DNA from: Spiroplasma chinense
GTDB lineage: Bacteria; Bacillota_I; Bacilli_A; Mycoplasmatales; Mycoplasmataceae
NCBI RefSeq assembly: GCF_008086545.1
Contig: NZ_CP043026.1
Location: forward strand, 1,302,001-1,366,000
Reading direction: 5' to 3'
DNA: 64,000 nucleotides
The notes below the pieces were generated by a model, which saw only the letters and a program-made list of their open reading frames with translations, ran no database searches and had not been told where the DNA came from. Position 1 is the first letter of the stretch, and every line of letters starts with the position of its first letter. Positions 7,677 through 18,512 of the stretch are shown in pieces. The position numbers and the translations under genes are program-made.

Positions 7677-7704
7677 AAGAGAAGTATTGAAAAGGAGTGG
7701 AAAT

Positions 7705-8835
7705 ATGGTTTGAGGAGAATCAAACTCTCGTGAGTTTTTAGATTGAGCAGATTTTTGTAGAAATAAAGCAATGCAATCAAGAGGTATAACTAGAAGTGGT
7801 GGACCTAATTTTTCTGCTGATAAAAGTAGTGCAGAATATAGAATGGTAAAAGAACAAGTTTTAAATCACATTCAAAAAAGCAGAACAATTAGCGTTCAAC
7901 AACTTTACAACACACTTCCAAGTAACTTAGTTGAAAACCCAACTCTAAAAAATGTACTTTTACAATTGTATTATGAAGATAATTTACAAATACAATCACA
8001 ATCTTCAAATACAAGTGATAGAGAAACTAACTTTGTTCTTGTATTTGTAAAAAAAGCTTCACCTCCACCTCAAAGAGCACCAAGACCTGATGCGCCAAGT
8101 AGAAAGCAATCAAATATAGAAGACTTGATTGATAATGATTGAAGAGCTACAGGTAGACGCTTAGATTTCGACAAAAAAGAACCTCCAAAAAGAGATAATT
8201 TAAATATAAACCTAAAAAGAAATCCACAACCAACTATTAATAAACCTGCTGTTAAACCAGTAATTGATGTCAGACAAAAAATTGAAATACCAAAAATTGA
8301 ACCAATTACCGTAACAACACCAAGTAAACCAATCAAAGAAATGATTAACGAAAACTTAACTTACATTCAAATCCCAAAACCAGAACCTGTAATTGAAGAA
8401 AAAATTGTTGAACAACCAACAATGACTTTAAACTTAGAGTTCCGTCCAGAACCTTCAAGAGTTGAAGTAGAAATTGAAGAGAAAGTATTTTATGGATTGA
8501 GTGCATATGATCTTTATTACTTGGAAGCATTCTTGAGAGATGCTTCACATAAAGAAACTCAAGATGTTGAAAAAATTACAATTACAAGAGATATTGTTAA
8601 GGTAAGAGCAGATATTATTTATATTAAAAATAAAGATTCTATGAATATAGGATTAAAAATTTTATTTGGATTAAGTTGTTTATTGGTTGTAGGTCTATTA
8701 TTTATTGGAGCAGTAACCAAAAACAAAGTTAGAAAAAAAGCTTTCAAAGATTATAACTCCAGATTGAAAAGTATTGGATATGACGTCATGAAAACAGAGT
8801 TAAAAGATCGTCACCCAAGAATTGTAGAATTTTAA
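7705..8835 (+). CDS. Hypothetical protein with C-terminal membrane anchor
   Basis: 376 aa. It starts MVWGESNSREFLDWADF (two UGA codons as Trp) after AAAGGAGTGG at good spacing. Residues about 45-105 look like a small folded helical domain (a winged-helix-like fold is possible but unproven). Residues about 115-250 are Pro-, Lys- and Arg-rich and probably disordered. A segment rich in Glu follows, then a single strong membrane helix at about 315-338 and a short basic tail. Probably a tail-anchored cytoplasmic protein. A 13-bp terminator follows. No homologue recognised. Confidence 0.75.
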
Positions 8836-9943: not shown

Positions 9944-10642
9944 TTATCAATAATGTCTTGCACTTTGCAATAAAGTGAATTGTTCTTTTTTACTCAATTC
10001 AGTTGATGCTAAAAAAACTTGTTGTTCTCTAATATTAAGTATAAAAGACTCTTTAATTTTTATATCTTTGTTAACTTCAATTAGTTTTTTATTCAAGTAT
10101 AATTGAGCATTATACTTCTCAACATAGTTAATTCGACTAGTTTTTATCTCTACTTGTATATATCCTTGATTTGTTTTTACAAGTACATCAATATGACCAA
10201 TAAAACTATAATTATTGTCAGAATAAATTAATACTCGATTACAATAAATATCACTCACTTTATATTTGTAAATTAAATTGTTAAATTCTTTTACATATCT
10301 TTTAGCTAAATTTATGTGATTAATGTTTTCACATTCATTTTCTACAAAGTTTATTTTAAATCCATTTCTATTTTCAATGCTTTTAAATACCATATCTTTA
10401 ATACACTCTGATTGTTTGATAGACTGTTTTATAACATTGTCACCAACTGTGTTTATGTGGGGATATTGCTCTAAAGTGATATCAAAAGTATTTTTTAATA
10501 ACAATTTATCATCGACAATGTTATTTTCAAGTATTTCTGTATAAATATTCTTTTCCTTTATTTGTTTTTTTACTATATATTCAAGATTTTCAAAATCTCA
10601 TTCCAGATATTTTGATATATCATTTATTCCAATTTGTTTCAT
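9944..10642 (-). CDS. PD-(D/E)XK nuclease-like protein
   Basis: 232 aa with one internal UGA (Trp15) and another as the last sense codon. The second half shows the RecB/Cas4-like nuclease pattern: GHIDVLV (motif II Asp), QVEIKTSR (motif III E-x-K) and AQLYLNKKLIEV (the Q-x2-Y-like motif IV of RecB-type nucleases). The N-terminal about 85 residues are unassigned. No Cys cluster of the Cas4 type and no cas, recB or addAB gene is nearby. Likely a stand-alone DNA-processing or defence nuclease; the assignment rests on the motifs and spacing only. Confidence 0.6.
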
Positions 10643-10656
10643 AACTATATATTAAA

Positions 10657-10687
10657 CAAAAAAAAATAATAGTCTAACTATTATTTT
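10657..10687 (-). terminator. Terminator overlapping stop of the repeat protein
   Basis: AAAATAATAGT (10663-10673) pairs with ACTATTATTTT (10677-10687), loop CTA, T run on the minus strand. Confidence 0.8.
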
Positions 10688-13600
10688 TGATTATAAGCAT
10701 GTCTTCTAGTTAAAGAATCAATTATTGACATTGGATCACTTGTTTTCATTGATTCAATGTTTTTTGAAACAACTTCAAGTTGATTTTTAATCATTGTAAA
10801 TTGTTCTTGAATCATTCTTAATTGATCTCCTTCAAATGAACTCAATGCAGCTTCTAGTCTTGCCATTCTTTGTTCTATTTCTCCAACTTTGTTATCACTA
10901 ATTGCACTAACTGTTGGTGTTGTAGGTTGAGCAAAACTTGGTGCTGGTGCACTTGGTTGAGAAGGTTCAAAGCTTGGTGCTGGTGCACTTGGTTGAGAAG
11001 GTTCAAAGCTTGGTGCTGGTGCACTTGGTTGAACATCGTCCATTGATCCAAACATTGGTGGTGCTGAAATAGTACCTGTTGTTGTACCATTTGCAGCAGC
11101 TCTTTCTTCAAGAGCTTTGATTTTTGCAGCTTCTTTTGCAACAACTTGGAACATTAAGTCAGGTTGTTTGAAGTCTAATTCCACCATAATTGATTTTTCA
11201 TCAGCATTTGGTTTTTCACCTGAAACAGGTAATTGATTTAAATCCATGTTAATAGCGTAAGCCATTTTAGCTTTCATTAATGCTTCAATTTCTGCTTTAG
11301 AATTATTTGCTCCATGAACTTTTGTTTGGGGAGCGACAAATGTTCCTATTTGTTCAGTTCCTGGTGCTACAAAAGCAGCTGGTTCTTCACTTCCAAAGTC
11401 TTCAATAGTTCCAAACATTGGTGGTGCAGTAATTGTACCAGTTGCTGTTGTACCATTTGCAGCAGCTCTTTCTTCAAGAGCTTTAATTTTTGCAGCTTCT
11501 TTTGCAACAACTTGGAACATTAAGTCAGGTTGTTTGAAGTTTAGATCTTCCATAACTGATTTTTCATCAGCATTTGGTTTTTCATTTGAAACTGGTATTT
11601 GAGTCATATTCATGTTTACAGCATATGCCATTCTAGCTTTCATTAATGCTTCAAGTTCAGCTTTAGATTGGCCTACTCCATGAGTTTTGGTTTGAGGAGC
11701 AACAAATGTTCCTAATTGTTCAGTTCCTGGTGCTACAAAAGCAGCTGGTTCTTCACTTCCAAAGTCTTCAATAGTTCCAAACATTGGTGGTGCAGTAATT
11801 GTACCAGTTGCTGTTGTACCATTTGCAGCAGCTCTTTCTTCAAGAGCTTTAATTTTTGCAGCTTCTTTTGCTACAACCTGGAACATTAAGTCAGGTTGTT
11901 TGAAGTTAAAGTCTTCCATAATTGATTTTTCATCAGCATTTGGATTCTCTTTTGAAACTGGTATTTGAGTCATATTCATGTTTACAGCATATGCCATTCT
12001 AGCTTTCATTAATGCTTCAAGTTCAGCTTTAGATTGGCCTACTCCATGAGTTTTGGTTTGAGGAGCAACAAATGTTCCTAATTGTTCAGTTCCTGGTGCT
12101 ACAAATGCAGCTGGCTCTTCACTTCCAAAGTCTTCAATAGTTCCAAACATTGGTGGTGCAGTAATTGTACCAGTTGCTGTTGTACCATTTGCAGCAGCTC
12201 TTTCTTCAAGAGCTTTAATTTTTGCAGCTTCTTTTGCAACAACTTGGAACATTAAGTCAGGTTGTTTGAAGTTAAAGTCTTCCATAATTGATTTTTCATC
12301 AGCATTTGGATTCTCTTTTGAAACTGGTATTTGAGTCATATTCATGTTTACAGCATATGCCATTCTAGCTTTCATTAATGCTTCAAGTTCAGCTTTAGAT
12401 TGGCCTACTCCATGAACTGTTGTTTGTGGTAATACAAATGTTTCTGGTTTAGAACCTGCAGAATATTTTGTATGTAAATCTTCAATATTTGGATCAATAG
12501 CTGTTGATGAAATACCACCAAATGCAGCAGTTGCTTCATCTATTGAACCTGTTTGGAAGTTTGCATTTTGAACAAAACCAGATTCTTTTGGAGCACTTTT
12601 TGGTAAAGGTGCTCCATTTGGTTGTGATAAATTAGGTTGTTCAAAACTTTGAGTTGAAGGTGCGCTTGTTGGTGCGCTTTCAAATCTTGAAGCTTCTCCA
12701 TTTAGAGTTGCTGTTTGTCCTGAACCATCCAATACAAGGAAAGGAATTTGATATTCATCTGGTAATTTTAATTTTTTACCCAATGCATTTACTCTCATAA
12801 CTTTTCCGTTGAATTTTTTACTTATTTTATCTTTTTCACCAGCAGACATTGATGGAGCTTTTTGCATAACTCCAGCTCTCATCATTTCTAGTTTTTGTCT
12901 ATATTCTTTTCACTGTTCATAAGCTTTTCTGTGTTTTGGATTTTCTACAACAGTGGTATTTAGTTTTTCCACTTTTTCTTCTTCAACATAGTTTGCTCAT
13001 TTAAGAGGTTCAACAACTGTTGAGATCCCTCCTGCAGTTTTTGCATAAAAGTTAAGGTTTCTAATTTTTTTGTCAAAGTCTGCCTTTAGTCTTTTTTTGT
13101 CTTTGTCTTCCAACTCAGACTCTTTTGCTAAAAGTTCTTCTCTTAACTTAGCTAATTCTTCTCTATGCGCTAAGTATTTTGCTTGTTTTTCTTTATTTGG
13201 TTTCTTTGGCAACGCAGAATTATCATTTGCTTTTGCTTTCCCATTTTGGTCCAGCATATTTTTTTGATTTTCCTGATTTAAAATTTCCAAATCTACGTTG
13301 CCAGTTAACTTTCCCTCTTTATTTACCTCTCTTTCGAATTTTCTTTCTTCTTTGTAAATAGAGATTAAGTTTCTTTCTTCAGCGTAGTTGTTTAGAGCTT
13401 CAGAATCAAATAGAACTGCTTCTAATAATAATCAAGCTTCTAATAAACAAACAGCTGCAATAATTGTAACCATTTGTCCGTAAATTAATAATAATACTGG
13501 TAAAACAACTAAGATTGCTTTAACGTAAGGTCTTGATATTTTTTGTCTTTTTTTCAATCTAATTAGTTCAATTACTGAAATTGTAATCATTCCAATAGCA

Positions 13601-13977
13601 GTTGATAATAATAAACCTGCCATTAAGATCACTTTTCATTGGTGGAATCCGAAAGCTCCTTCAGCTCCACCACCATTTTTAAGAGCCATTAAAGCTCCTG
13701 GATTAATGATTCATGGGTTGATTCCTCCAGTGAAAAGTCCACCAGAAGTTGCTGTTGCTAATGATTCATTTCCCATTTTAAAAATAGGTGTACGAATTGG
13801 GTTGTTTGATAAGAATAAGAATAATTTATATAAGAAATTACCCTTACCAGCAGTGGATGCAAACATTGTAGTTGTCATTCACATTGATGCTGTTAATGTT
13901 AATACTGAGAATGTTAATAAGAATATTGCTCCAACAATTACTGTTGATCAAGCTAGAGCTATAAGTAGTATAAACAT
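10681..13977 (-). CDS. Large membrane protein with four tandem 122-aa repeats
   Basis: 1098 aa in one frame when UGA is Trp. GGAGGAATAGTT precedes the ATG at 13977. Membrane segments lie at about 2-40, 116-137 and 150-185. A charged Lys/Glu-rich region follows (about 230-330). Residues about 516-1000 hold four copies of a 122-residue repeat (366-bp DNA period), each with cores AELEALMKA, QPDLMFQVVAKEAAKIKALEERAA and APPMFG. Copies one and two are identical over most of their length. Three 12-residue PSAPAPSFEPSQ units follow, then a short coiled coil. It lies 21 bases behind the FG-repeat gene. No signal peptide; the long tail is probably cytoplasmic. A scaffold or cytoskeletal linker role is inference. 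Confidence 0.8.
10935..11040 (-). repeat. Three 36-bp tandem repeats
   Basis: Encode the 12-residue unit PSAPAPSFEPSQ, nearly three times, just after the large repeats. Confidence 0.85.
11040..12430 (-). repeat. Four tandem 366-bp coding repeats
   Basis: A marker sequence ATTAAGTCAG recurs at 11153, 11519, 11885 and 12251, giving an exact 366-base period (122 codons). The copies nearest 12.4 and 12.0 kb are almost identical at DNA level, the copy at about 11.15 kb is the most diverged. Confidence 0.95.
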
Positions 13978-13998
13978 AACTATTCCTCCTTGTTCTTT

Positions 13999-16440
13999 CT
14001 ATTTGTTAAGGTCTTTTCAGTTACCTGTTACTTTAATCAGGTTTTCACCTGTTTTTTTTCTTGCTTCATTAGCTGTTGCTTCTGCAATGCTAATGTTTGG
14101 TCTATTTTCAAAAGCATTTGCCATACCTTGCAATTGTGCATGTACAGCATCATATCCTCTCGGATCTTCAACTCTTGTAGACTCTAATGAATTGTTTGAG
14201 TGCATACTCATATTTTCAAAGACTTTTTGACCCGGTGCATTTGATTGCACTGGTGCATTTGATTTTGCAAGTATTGCCGGATTAAATCCGGCCTGTCCAG
14301 TCCTTTCAAGTCGAGCTTGCTCTTCTTGTCTTTCGCGCTCAAGAGCTTCTTCAGCTCTTCTTTGTAAATTCAAGTCAACGCGAATTCTAATATTCCCATC
14401 CAAACCAGGGTCATATTCTTCTTCGGGTTCTTCCTCTTCTTGTATTAAACTACTTGGAAGTCCGAACCCCACACTTGATGGTGTGCTGTTTGAAGGGGAT
14501 GTAAAGCCCCCAGGTGCTTCAAATGAAGCAGACGATACTGGGCCTTCCCCAAATGTTTGTTGCGGCATTTGGCCCGTACTTTGTGGCGGAGGTGCGTTCT
14601 CCGACATTGGTACATTAAAATTATTCATTTCTTGTGGCTGTTGCGGCGTTAATGGTGCCTCAAAACTAGGTTGAGTTGCCACTTCTTGAAAATTTGAAGG
14701 CATACCTCCAAACTGTGGTGCTCCCGTTTGATCCATTGGTGAACCAAAACTTGGTGTGCTACCCATGTCAGGTGCTCCAAAGTTTGGTGCTACAGGTGCC
14801 GTTTCTTGCATCGGTGAACCAAATCCAGGTCCCCCACCCATGTCAGGTGCTTCAAAATTTTGAGCTTGAGGTGTTTGATTTTGCATTTGATTATTATTAG
14901 TTATAGGAACATCTCCCGCTACTATATAACTATCAATTAATCCAACGATTTGAGCAACTGTATCAGTTGTTTGCGCAAGTGACATAAATGATTCACTAAA
15001 TTCAAATACAAATTTAAATTCATGCATATCGTGGAAAATAGTATTAATAAATTGAACTGTTTTAGTTGATTGAGTTATTTCTAACTGATTAAATCCTGTT
15101 AAAACCATTAAACTTGTTGTTTGGTCTAAATTATAATCAAATGATAATTGCTTAAATTCGCTTCTTATATTTTCTATTGGGTCTGCTAATCCTAAACCAT
15201 CCATTATTAAATCAACTTCAGAACCCGTTTTACCATATTCTGTTGCAGCCAATAATAATGAAGTTCTTTCTCATAGAGCTCTCTTATCATCTAATGAAAC
15301 TAGCGGAACATTGTTTACTATTTGTTTCAATAAAAATAAGAAAGGAGCTGCATACATATGAACTTCTTTCATTTCGATTTCCACTTTTTTATTTTGTGGC
15401 AATAGATTAATGAATTGTTTTGTTAATTCATTTAGGTGAGTGTCACCACCAACAAGGGCAAATATTTGTCCTTGTTGTGAATTGTTATTTATTTCATTAA
15501 TAAAATTATTAATACCAATCTTTTGACCTCTAGGTTGGTTCATTACAACATTATTCTGTTGTGATCCCATACCCATATTTTGTGTCATTGAAACTTGTTG
15601 TTCCATTGGTGAACCAAAACTTGGTGCCATATTATTTGCTGGCATTGAACCAAAACTTGGTGTGCTGCCCATGTCAGGTGCTCCAAAGCTTGGTGCAGCT
15701 GTAGTTTGTTGTTCCATTGGTGAACCAAAACTTGGTGCAGCTGTAGTTTGTTGTTCCATTGGTGAACCAAAACTTGGTGCAGCTGGAGTTTGTTGTTCCA
15801 TTGGTGAACCAAAGCTTGGTGTGCTACCCATGTCAGGTGCTCCAAAGCTTGGTGCAGCTGGAGTTTGTTGTTCCATTGGTGAACCAAAGCTTGGTGCAGC
15901 AGGTGCTGTTTCTTGCATTGGTGCTCCAAAGCTTGGTGTGCTACCCATGTCAGGTGCTCCAAAGCTTGGTGCTATTGTTGAGGTTTGTTCCATTGGTGAG
16001 CCAAAACTTGGTGCCATATTATTTGCTGGCATTGAACCAAAACTTGGTGAGCCACCCATATCAGGTGCTCCAAAGCTTGGTGTTATTGTTGAGGTTTGTT
16101 CCATTGGTGAACCAAAACTTGGTGAGCCACCCATATCAGGTGAGCCAAAACTTGGTGTGCTACCCATGTCAGGTGCTCCAAAACTTGGAGTTGATGAAGG
16201 CATAAATGCAGGTCCACTAGAATCAGGAGATCCAGCTCCCATTCCGAACGGAGGTACATTAGTTTGGTTTGTTTCACCTATCAAACTCTTAATAAAAGAA
16301 GGCATTACGCCCTTATCTTGAGTGAAACCCATTTGTGCACCTAGTCTTGCATATTTTTCACGCTCTTTTTCAGCTTCTTGTTTTAATTTCTCAGCCTCTT
16401 CACGTTTCTTTTTCATACGTTCGAACGGATTTACATACAT
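13999..16440 (-). CDS. FG-repeat, low-complexity scaffold-like protein
   Basis: 813 aa, one frame with UGA as Trp. ATG at 16440 after AAAGGGGTG. Order: charged helix (residues 1-45, FERMKKKREEAEKLKQ), FG array one (about 57-285) built from PSFGSPMEQ, PSFGAPDMGST and similar units with 17 FG dipeptides, a folded helical domain (about 290-505) without recognised motif, FG array two (about 517-657), an acidic patch EEEEPEEEYD, then a helical C-terminus. No signal peptide or membrane segment, so cytoplasmic. First gene of a two-gene operon with the membrane repeat protein. I recognise no family; the composition resembles disordered assembly proteins. Confidence 0.8.
14470..14890 (-). repeat. Second FG-rich coding repeat array
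   Basis: Degenerate repeats encoding NFGAPDMGST and SFGSPM units plus Pro/Gln-rich spacers; six FG dipeptides. Confidence 0.75.
15595..16215 (-). repeat. First FG-rich coding repeat array
   Basis: Tandem units of about 33-48 bases encoding PSFGSPMEQQTPAA and PSFGAPDMGST; many units are near identical, so copy number is likely to vary by slippage or recombination. Confidence 0.9.
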
Positions 16441-16539: not shown

Positions 16540-17052
16540 CTACCTTTTTTTCTCGTTAGTAGTTAAATCCACAATATTTGATGGGTTTTTTGACAATTCT
16601 CCCGATCAAAATATGCCATCTTGGTTTAAAAATTTCTTGAATTCATCTAACGAACTCAAGAAATTTTGACCTGTTTTGTTTACGCTTGTTGAGAAAATTG
16701 GTCCAGTTTGATTTATAACTTCAACCAAATCTTCTCTCTTAACAAGCCTTACAGCATTTTTTTTTGTTTTTTCTTTGTTATATTCAATAACTGTAGTGGG
16801 ATAAGTTTTATTTAGAAATTCAATAGCTTTATCTGAAAGTTCAATAAACTTTTCAGCTTGCTCTAAACTTGAAACTAGAATAATTAATGGTTTATCCAAT
16901 TCGCTTTCTTTTAAGCGATTGATCTTTAACCTATTTTCTTCAGACACTTTTGCACTGATACCATAAATCGTATCAGTTGGTAATATAACAATTTCATTGT
17001 TATTTATTAACTCTATTGCCCTTTTTGTTTCAAGATTAGTCATGTATTTCAT
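16540..17052 (-). CDS. tsaC: YrdC/Sua5-type threonylcarbamoyl-AMP synthase
   Basis: 170 aa, first step of tRNA t6A37 synthesis (Thr, bicarbonate, ATP). The N-terminal part contains the conserved VILPTDTIYGISAK and NRLKESELDKPLIIL blocks, and S-T-S-V-N-K-T-G lies near residue 120. It has only the YrdC domain, without the C-terminal Sua5 domain. UGA encodes Trp150. ATG at 17052 after GAGGGG. It neighbours prmC/prfA, a usual arrangement in Firmicutes and their relatives. It has its own extended -10. Confidence 0.88.
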
Positions 17053-17150: not shown

Positions 17151-17175
17151 AAAAAACCCCTATTTTATGGGGTTT
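17151..17175 (-). terminator. Terminator overlapping the stop of the gene at 17160
   Basis: AAACCCC (17154-17160) pairs with GGGGTTT (17169-17175), T run on the minus strand. Confidence 0.8.
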
Positions 17176-18500
17176 AAAGGAAATTTATATAATTTTTTCA
17201 TTTTACTTCCTAAAATTGTATAAGTAACAATTACAAAAGTTACTGAAATTAATACTTGTGAGACGTATTGTTGTCCTCTTAATCAAGGATATTTAACAAC
17301 TTCTTGTTCAAAAATGTTGTTTCTAACATCTTCAATGTTTGCAAAATTATCTTGATATTTACTTAGTTTTTCAATTAAACCATTATCATTTCAAAATTTA
17401 ACTATTGAATTTATTTCATACATTACATAAGTGTTTACACTTATAACACATATTAATTCAATAAATAGAATTACGAACTGAGTTATAAAGAATCCTTTTG
17501 TAGCTTTGATCCCTTTAAAATATACGAGACCAAAGATGCACATTGTAGCCAACAAGAACCCTGTAGCTATAATTGGTAAGTGAGAAACTGTAAATCTAAG
17601 ACTTTTAAATCTATCAAATTCATTTAAATCTTCAACTTGTAATAAGTAAGGTGCTTTAAAAGTTCAATCAAGTAACGAATGAATATACGAGTTCTGCATT
17701 GATAGTTTAATCACAAATATGAATTGTGGAATAAAAACTATCATGGTTGAAATAATTAATCAAATACTTACATTCTTATTGTTATTTATTGATAATCTTC
17801 CAATTAATTTTGCAACTTTACTTTGATCTAAATTCTTTTTAACACTTGCAAGAGACTCAATTTCATCATCTTGTTTTCTGTCCAAGTTACTATAGAATGC
17901 AGAGAAGTAAATTATAACCATTAATATTTGGAATAAACATACTCATCAAGTTAAATTTTCATCACTTCATTTAAAGTTTTTAGTCTTTGCAAAATTAACA
18001 CTAAACTTTTGAGCAATTTGAGCCATTTTTTCATTATCTAAAACATGGTCTCCTTGACTTACATTTGCTAAATATACGTATAGATCATAAAACAGTGAGT
18101 AAGAATAAGCTGCAAAAGCAAAACAAATACTTGCACAAACCAATAAAGTTACAATTAATACGAAGTGCACATTTTTTCAAAATATACTTTTATCAATTAA
18201 AACAAGTAATTGTTTTGTAAAGATAATTATTATAAGAGCTAACAATACCAAACCAAGTCCTACTCAAATTAATGTGAAAATTAGGTTTTTACTTGGCACA
18301 ATACTTTTATCAAAGACTTCTCTAAAAGTTGAAAAGTTATTTACATACAGTTTAAAGTTTGGGTTTGCATAAACTATTCCAATGAAAGCAATTGAAGGAA
18401 TAAAAATGAAAGCAAAAATAAGACAAGCTTTAATTGACTTAGATAATATTGATACCCTTATGCTTTTAATCGCTTTGAAAGATGAATTTTTAAGTTTCAT
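17160..18500 (-). CDS. Multi-TM membrane protein, unknown
   Basis: 446 aa with about eight hydrophobic segments (near residues 22-45, 77-97, 107-130, 170-190, 222-245, 285-305, 315-345 and 405-425) separated by polar loops, many UGA-coded Trp. The ATG at 18500 follows AAGGAG by 8 bases; an in-frame GTG three codons upstream overlaps the ribosome-binding site and is less likely. It is the last gene of the tdk-prfA-prmC run and starts 12 bases after prmC. No transporter signature recognised. Confidence 0.7.
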
Positions 18501-18512
18501 TTCTTGCACTCC

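What the first reader, a model, noticed from the sequence alone, without database searches (positions are those of the whole stretch)
10681..16440. Candidate scaffold system: FG protein plus membrane repeat protein
Two very large unfamiliar genes lie 21 bases apart under one promoter. One is soluble and FG-rich; the other has three or four N-terminal membrane segments and a long repeat tail that itself contains PSFEPSQ and APPMFG. Shared low-complexity style and co-transcription suggest a membrane-anchored partner pair, possibly of the cell pole or internal ribbon.
Basis: inference. Interest (0 to 1): 0.85.

Follow-up and report, generated by a model that had tools for sequence, protein, structure and literature searches.

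The report
Conserved Spiroplasma membrane-scaffold gene pair
Two neighbouring genes of unknown function, one for a dead-ATPase-like soluble protein and one for its likely membrane partner, are kept together in nearly every helical, fibril-bearing Spiroplasma genome and are cleanly missing from their round, fibril-less relatives, which makes them candidates for parts that fix the bacterium's internal helical skeleton or cell pole to the membrane.

Summary
In detail: gene A (13999-16440, minus, 813 aa, FG-rich) and gene B (10681-13977, minus, 1098 aa, N-terminal membrane segments, repeat tail) lie 21 bases apart.

FG repeats are strong in this genome and weak or absent in the orthologues counted; B's tail shrinks to almost nothing in two lineages. 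Conserved are a ~200-residue A core, predicted with confidence as an AAA+/STAND-type ATPase fold without a P-loop, and a B module of about four membrane segments plus a near-invariant juxtamembrane helix; the tail is probably cytoplasmic.

The pair is adjacent in 38 of the 39 A-and-B genomes read (fused in the last). A occurs in 28 of 148 genomes of the order, exactly those with full-length fibril protein, and in 40 of the 42 fibril-bearing genomes of the family. In the six fibril-less relatives read, the same spot is empty. Two lineages break the rule: one keeps A without the membrane module, one keeps a B-like gene without A. About 15% of shared Spiroplasma core genes were lost on that same branch, so co-loss is only modest evidence.

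A membrane-anchored cytoskeletal scaffold is plausible but unproven.

The parts
13999..16440 (-). Gene A: FG-rich soluble protein, 813 aa, 87.3 kDa, pI 4.5
16261..16440 (-). A residues 1-60: conserved N-terminal segment MYxNPFERMKK...; an NPF/NPY motif is found in all 39 A proteins scanned (at the C-terminus in the three g3 genomes)
15562..16251 (-). A first disordered arm, PSFG / PDMG repeats (approx. residues 64-293); strong FG enrichment specific to this genome
14911..15528 (-). A core domain, approx. residues 305-510: AAA+/STAND-type alpha/beta fold without Walker A at the P-loop position; found in 40 of 60 family genomes
14371..14883 (-). A second disordered P/Q/FG arm
13978..13998 (-). 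21-nt A-B spacer with AAGGAGG ribosome-binding site
10681..13977 (-). Gene B: membrane protein with repeat tail, 1098 aa, 119.6 kDa
13312..13977 (-). B residues 1-222: conserved module with predicted helices 2-33, 110-142, 150-166 and 169 onward, basic TM2-TM3 loop (RLKKRQKISRPYVK), juxtamembrane ALNNYAEERNLISIYKEERKFEREVNKEGK
12730..12936 (-). B residues 348-416: 69-aa helical tail domain conserved in the g1, g38 and most g5 B proteins read (partial second copy at residues 260-315)
10942..12399 (-). B repeat array, four ~120-aa units (tandem repeat finder: 11047-12415, period 366 bp); each unit holds an EALMKARMAYAVNMNM-like motif that recurs 1-6 times in 10 of 27 B proteins scanned, all of genus g1
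10684..10893 (-). B C-terminal coiled-coil-like segment (residues 1029-1098) conserved in the g1 and g38 B proteins
16540..17052 (-). Upstream flank: Sua5/TsaC-like gene, at or near the upstream side of A in many genomes; marks one side of the empty site in the fibril-less genomes read
9944..10642 (-). Downstream flank in most g1 genomes: Cas4-like (weak) nuclease gene; directly abuts the Sua5 gene in the six fibril-less genomes read

Best explanation
A and B are one functional unit: a membrane-anchored scaffold of helical Spiroplasma. B sits in the membrane through a short module, most likely four crossings with both ends inside, and presents a conserved helix plus a long, fast-changing, multivalent cytoplasmic tail. 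A is a cytosolic adaptor whose centre is an AAA+/STAND-type ATPase fold that has lost its nucleotide site and serves as a binding platform, with disordered arms on both sides. Together they most likely tie the fibril/MreB ribbon, or the polar end it starts from, to the membrane. Shown here: conservation as a pair, the predicted fold, absence of a P-loop at the expected position, co-distribution with fibril, the empty site in fibril-less relatives. Inferred: cytoplasmic tail (about 0.8), physical partnership (about 0.65), the cytoskeletal role (about 0.45), ribbon or pole location.
For: Pair adjacent and co-directional in 38 of 39 genomes with A and B read, gaps 2 to 127 nt where measured, and in one reading frame in G085. 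A core in 28 of 148 order genomes, the same 28 that hold full-length fibril protein; B module in 27 of them. In 60 family genomes A in 40, fibril in 42. Genomes with strong MreB matches but no full-length fibril (G009, G010, G022, G059) also lack A. Neighbour gene 17160-18509 is kept in 55 of 60, fibril-less ones included. In six fibril-less genomes from five genera the Sua5 gene abuts the 9944 gene with no A or B between. A core: AlphaFold pLDDT 85.1, pTM 0.81; best structural matches RdrA Z 12.2 (rmsd 3.9, 204 aligned), ORC subunits Z about 10, Sir3 AAA+ Z 8.7. Basic TM2-TM3 loop in all 27 B proteins examined and net-basic tail ends in the four short ones.
Against: No experiment places either protein at the ribbon or pole. 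Published ribbon and Triton-insoluble protein lists of S. eriocheiris name Fibril, MreBs, FtsH, SPE-1201 and others (PMC5289999; PMC9582952), and none is a Spiroplasma-only protein of the size of A (337 aa) or B (985 aa) in G109, which has that species' genome size. Co-loss with fibril is one event: 81 of 531 shared core genes, mostly metabolic, were lost on that branch (PMC6117150). G162/G163 keep fibril but no A; G132 keeps fibril and A but not the B module. MreBs and fibril alone give helicity and swimming in other mollicutes without this pair (PMC9710875, PMC9663586 abstracts; PMC13310574). The G085 fusion depends on one base at the stop codon, and B's start site is intact there.
Confidence: 0.45

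Rival explanations
1. A-B is a membrane-anchored scaffold for another process (division, protein quality control, envelope organisation) that was lost on the same branch as fibril by coincidence of genome reduction.
For: About 15% of genes shared by the Apis and Citri clades were lost on that branch, mostly metabolic (PMC6117150); G162/G163 keep fibril without A; neither protein recognisable in published ribbon lists.
Against: Retained in every other fibril-bearing genome found, including reduced 0.89-0.98 Mb genomes (G037, G057, G100, G124); the local flanks are kept while only A and B are missing.
Confidence: 0.37
2. B is a surface protein: three crossings put the repeat tail outside, as an adhesin or variable antigen; A is unrelated and only co-transcribed.
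For: Tail is repetitive and varies greatly in length and sequence; the third hydrophobic stretch could be read as one segment.
Against: A 35-residue hydrophobic stretch in all 27 B proteins examined with a predicted helix break at 167-168, and an even longer hydrophobic stretch in the g39 B-like proteins, favour a hairpin; net-basic short tails favour inside; the pair stays together across lineages.
Confidence: 0.1
3. The pair derives from a STAND/AAA+-plus-membrane-effector defence system, and may still act so.
For: Best structural match of the A core is RdrA of the RADAR defence system; very weak profile hits to LmuA (1 of 19 A cores) and SLATT_5 (5 of 19 B modules).
Against: No P-loop at the expected position, so no ATP-driven switch; fixed core-genome position near prmC-prfA in most genomes, not an island; near-universal in the lineage, unlike most defence systems.
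Confidence: 0.06

Closest known systems
RdrA of the RADAR system, ORC/Cdc6 and Sir3 AAA+ domains (AAA+/STAND ATPase fold)
   Same: Same predicted fold over about 150-205 residues of the A core; Sir3 is, from general knowledge, another AAA+ domain used as a structural platform
   Different: No sequence-level match; no Walker A at the P-loop position and no conserved Walker B acid; flanked by disordered arms and paired with a membrane protein
Fibril protein and MreB1-5 of the Spiroplasma ribbon
   Same: Same lineage distribution as fibril, with two exceptional lineages
   Different: No sequence match to either was seen; not reported in isolated ribbons
SPE_1229, the '7th protein' of the mreB locus (PMC10074174), and SPE-1201 (PMC9582952)
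   Same: Spiroplasma-only membrane or envelope proteins discussed with the swimming machinery
   Different: The 7th protein is a predicted extracellular lipoprotein limited to the Citri clade; SPE-1201 (769 aa, two membrane segments) does not match A or B in length
Mycoplasma terminal-organelle scaffold proteins (HMW1, HMW3, P65)
   Same: Acidic, proline/glutamine-rich, low-complexity scaffold style (recalled from general knowledge)
   Different: Homology not tested directly; Pfam/NCBIfam scans found none; different lineage and motility
Eukaryotic FG nucleoporins
   Same: FG dipeptide repeats in a disordered arm of this one protein
   Different: Below the Pfam cut-off and not conserved in orthologues; low-complexity convergence

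Membership tests
AAA+/STAND ATPase superfamily | ASCE alpha/beta ATPase fold | tested here: met
   Model pLDDT 85.1, pTM 0.81; VIA-align Z 12.2 to RdrA, about 10 to ORC subunits; Foldseek best E 1.8e-3. A predicted fold, not a solved one
AAA+/STAND ATPase superfamily | Walker A P-loop GxxxxGK[ST] after strand 1 | tested here: not met
   Absent at the P-loop position (window core residues 27-33, VGGDTHL) in the 28 core sequences aligned. A GKT string matches elsewhere in 14 of 39, at the end of a predicted helix, and is missing in g5
AAA+/STAND ATPase superfamily | Walker B acidic residue(s) | tested here: not met
   Not conserved in the core alignment; a few members (for example G132, G147) keep an Asp-Glu or Asp-Asp there
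RADAR RdrA | Match to the PADLOC RdrA model | tested here: not met
   No RdrA match listed for any of 19 cores up to E 10
Nucleoporin FG repeat (PF13634) | Score over the curated cut-off | tested here: not met
   19.9 bits against 32.2; FG content not conserved in orthologues
SLATT membrane effector domains | Score over the curated cut-off | tested here: not met
   Window member 11.1 bits against 29.5; 5 of 19 members weakly match
Spiroplasma ribbon/cytoskeleton component | Co-occurrence with fibril | tested here: met
   28 of 28 in the order sample, 40 of 42 in the family sample; rests on about one concordant loss
Spiroplasma ribbon/cytoskeleton component | Presence in isolated ribbons | tested here: inconclusive
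   No band of matching size and description in PMC5289999 and PMC9582952; only the main bands were identified, and locus tags could not be mapped directly
Mycoplasma terminal-organelle proteins | Sequence or structural homology | not tested
   Only general Pfam/NCBIfam scans were run

The most novel reading that the evidence does not exclude
A and B are the membrane or tip attachment of the Spiroplasma helical ribbon, using a catalytically dead AAA+/STAND domain as a structural adaptor and a multivalent disordered membrane-protein tail as the linker.
Probability: 0.27. Interest if true: 0.82.

Novelty: new variant of a known kind. Interest (0 to 1): 0.6.

Why it matters
Spiroplasma swims by bending an internal ribbon, and reconstitution work has concentrated on fibril and MreB. 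Which MreB forms the ribbon, how the kink is propagated from the tip and what breaks the symmetry there are still open in the 2026 review searched here (PMC13310574). A pair of membrane and adaptor genes kept by nearly all fibril-bearing lineages and missing from fibril-less descendants gives a short, concrete list of proteins to delete, tag and pull down. It would also add a case of a dead AAA+/STAND domain reused as a scaffold.

Tried and rejected
FG nucleoporin-like reading: strong FG enrichment is specific to the window genome. Pfam, NCBIfam, PHROGs and PADLOC gave no convincing family; hits to T2SS GspL, PHROG 5586 and the like fall on B's repeats with no stretch that passes on its own. 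PDB sequence search with the A core profile: nothing credible. PDB fold search with the B module: no match, best Z 5.3 to Ndc80:Nuf2; this does not exclude a known fold. SPE-1201 as the B orthologue: rejected on length and expected gene position; no obvious 769-aa, two-segment candidate of its own was picked out in the 54 kb before mreB2 of G109. The 565-aa gene downstream of A in G132 as a soluble B: the tail-domain profile did not match, so not claimed. Promoter scan: chance level. A scan of named genomes returned only S. poulsonii, so most species names are not established here. The first attempt with the full A1 alignment had no stretch conserved enough to scan.
Full report
What is there. 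The window lies in a 1,370,182-bp Spiroplasma-type genome that reads TGA as Trp. Gene A (13999-16440, minus, 813 aa) and gene B (10681-13977, minus, 1098 aa) are separated by 21 nt carrying AAGGAGG before B's ATG. A has 23 FG dipeptides against 4.7 expected, no evident membrane segment, and pI 4.5; B has three hydrophobic stretches near the N-terminus and a tail with a 366-bp tandem repeat. Promoter-like sites are at chance level, so the single promoter is inferred from spacing and conservation, not shown.

The pair is conserved, the style is not. In 148 genomes of the order, A was found in 28 and B in 27 (one further weak B match, G074, is judged chance). In the loci read, A and B are adjacent on one strand, with gaps of 2 to 127 nt where measured, in 38 of 39 genomes that have both; one of these, G152, has its A split in two frames. 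In the remaining one, G085, they form one 1708-aa frame. That fusion depends on one base at the stop codon and B's ribosome-binding site and ATG are intact there, so I give it little weight. Upstream, prfA, prmC, the 17160 gene and the Sua5 gene precede A in that order in many genomes, with one or more of them missing or moved in others. Strong FG enrichment is specific to the window genome: the other 27 A proteins counted have 0-8 FG. Citri-clade A proteins are 296-341 aa, little more than the core. B is only about 200-220 aa, without a repeat tail, in three g3 genomes and in G147 (g9).

What is conserved in A. A core of about 200 residues (window residues 305-510) was recovered in all 28 A proteins of the first set and in the 12 of the second. 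AlphaFold gives pLDDT 85.1 and pTM 0.81. Structural comparison puts it with AAA+/STAND ATPases: RdrA Z 12.2 over 204 residues, ORC subunits about 10, Sir3 AAA+ 8.7; Foldseek alone is weak (best E 1.8e-3), and sequence profiles find nothing convincing. The P-loop position carries no GxxxxGK[ST] in the 28 aligned cores and the Walker B acid is not conserved. A GKT string matches elsewhere in 14 of 39 but lies at the end of a predicted helix and is missing in g5. I read the core as a dead ATPase used as a platform. An NPF or NPY motif is present in all 39 A proteins scanned, at the N-terminus except in the three g3 genomes, where it sits at the C-terminus.

What is conserved in B. The first 222 residues: a first helix, a variable outer loop, a second helix, a loop with 5-7 basic residues, a 35-residue hydrophobic stretch, and ALNNYAEERNLIxIYKEERKFEKEVSKEGK. 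The model (pLDDT 75.9, pTM 0.67) shows helices 2-33, 110-142, 150-166 and 169 onward, with a break at 167-168 inside the hydrophobic stretch. The basic loop, that break and the net-basic short tails favour four crossings with both ends inside; this is inference, not proof. Beyond the module, a 69-aa tail domain is found in the g1, g38 and most g5 proteins, and a C-terminal coiled-coil-like segment in g1 and g38. A motif like EFMRQKMARAVNMDLNQL occurs 1-6 times in 10 of 27 B proteins scanned, all of genus g1.

Distribution. Full-length fibril protein is found in the same 28 of 148 order genomes as A. In 60 family genomes A is in 40 and fibril in 42; the two extra are G162 and G163, with divergent fibril (42% and 35% identity). 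There, next to the Sua5 gene, stands a gene of B-like architecture (525 and 346 aa); profile support is weak for G162 (14.5 bits) and absent for G163, so the relation rests on position and layout. G132 has A and fibril but no B module. Four genomes with strong MreB matches and no full-length fibril lack A. In the six fibril-less genomes read, from five genera, the Sua5 gene directly abuts the 9944 gene (overlap 13 nt in five, 1 nt in one), with neither A nor B. The neighbour gene 17160 is kept in 55 of 60 family genomes.

How much that is worth. On a tree of four flanking proteins the fibril-less genomes form one group and A presence needs two changes, so the match with fibril rests mainly on one concordant loss. 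The literature states that 81 of 531 genes shared by the Apis and Citri clades, mostly metabolic ones but also fib and mreB, were lost on the branch to the coccoid Mycoides-Entomoplasmataceae clade (PMC6117150). A random shared gene would therefore show this pattern about 15% of the time.

Mechanism. The best reading is a membrane-anchored scaffold unit: B in the membrane with a cytoplasmic tail, A as adaptor, serving the helical cytoskeleton or its polar end (about 0.45). Against it, isolated ribbons were reported to contain Fibril, MreBs, FtsH and SPE-1201, with no protein recognisable as A or B, and MreBs and fibril suffice for helicity and swimming in reconstituted mollicutes. The main rival is a scaffold for some other process lost at the same time.

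Verdict. A well-conserved gene pair with a predicted dead AAA+/STAND core; I found no description of it in the papers searched, which were few. Interest 0.6.

Noticed in passing
L140:10793-12370 (-) and L141:10921-11961 (-) (G162, G163): Genomes with divergent full-length fibril but no A carry a gene of B-like layout (membrane segments, basic loop, long low-complexity tail) next to the Sua5 gene; profile support weak in G162, none in G163.
   Followed up: partly
L082:6288-7985 (-) (G132): The gene directly downstream of A encodes a 565-aa hydrophilic protein without evident membrane segments in B's place; no profile link to B was found.
   Followed up: partly
G118:C1:424287-425815, G067:C1:366301-367833, G152:C1:895766-896441: Fibril matches lie in two frames in G118 and hold an in-frame TAA in G067; A is split in two frames in G152. 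Degradation or assembly error not resolved.
   Followed up: no
window 7687-8835 (+): Proline-rich 382-aa protein with a C-terminal hydrophobic segment, conserved near B in many g1 genomes and in G132.
   Followed up: no
L088, L062, L065 (g5), C-terminus of B: The three Citri-clade B tails read to the end finish in a conserved H-x3-H ... C-x2-C stretch, possibly metal-binding, absent from the window's B.
   Followed up: no
window 9944-10642 (-): Weakly Cas4-like nuclease gene, conserved downstream of B in many g1 genomes and next to the Sua5 gene in the six fibril-less genomes read.
   Followed up: partly
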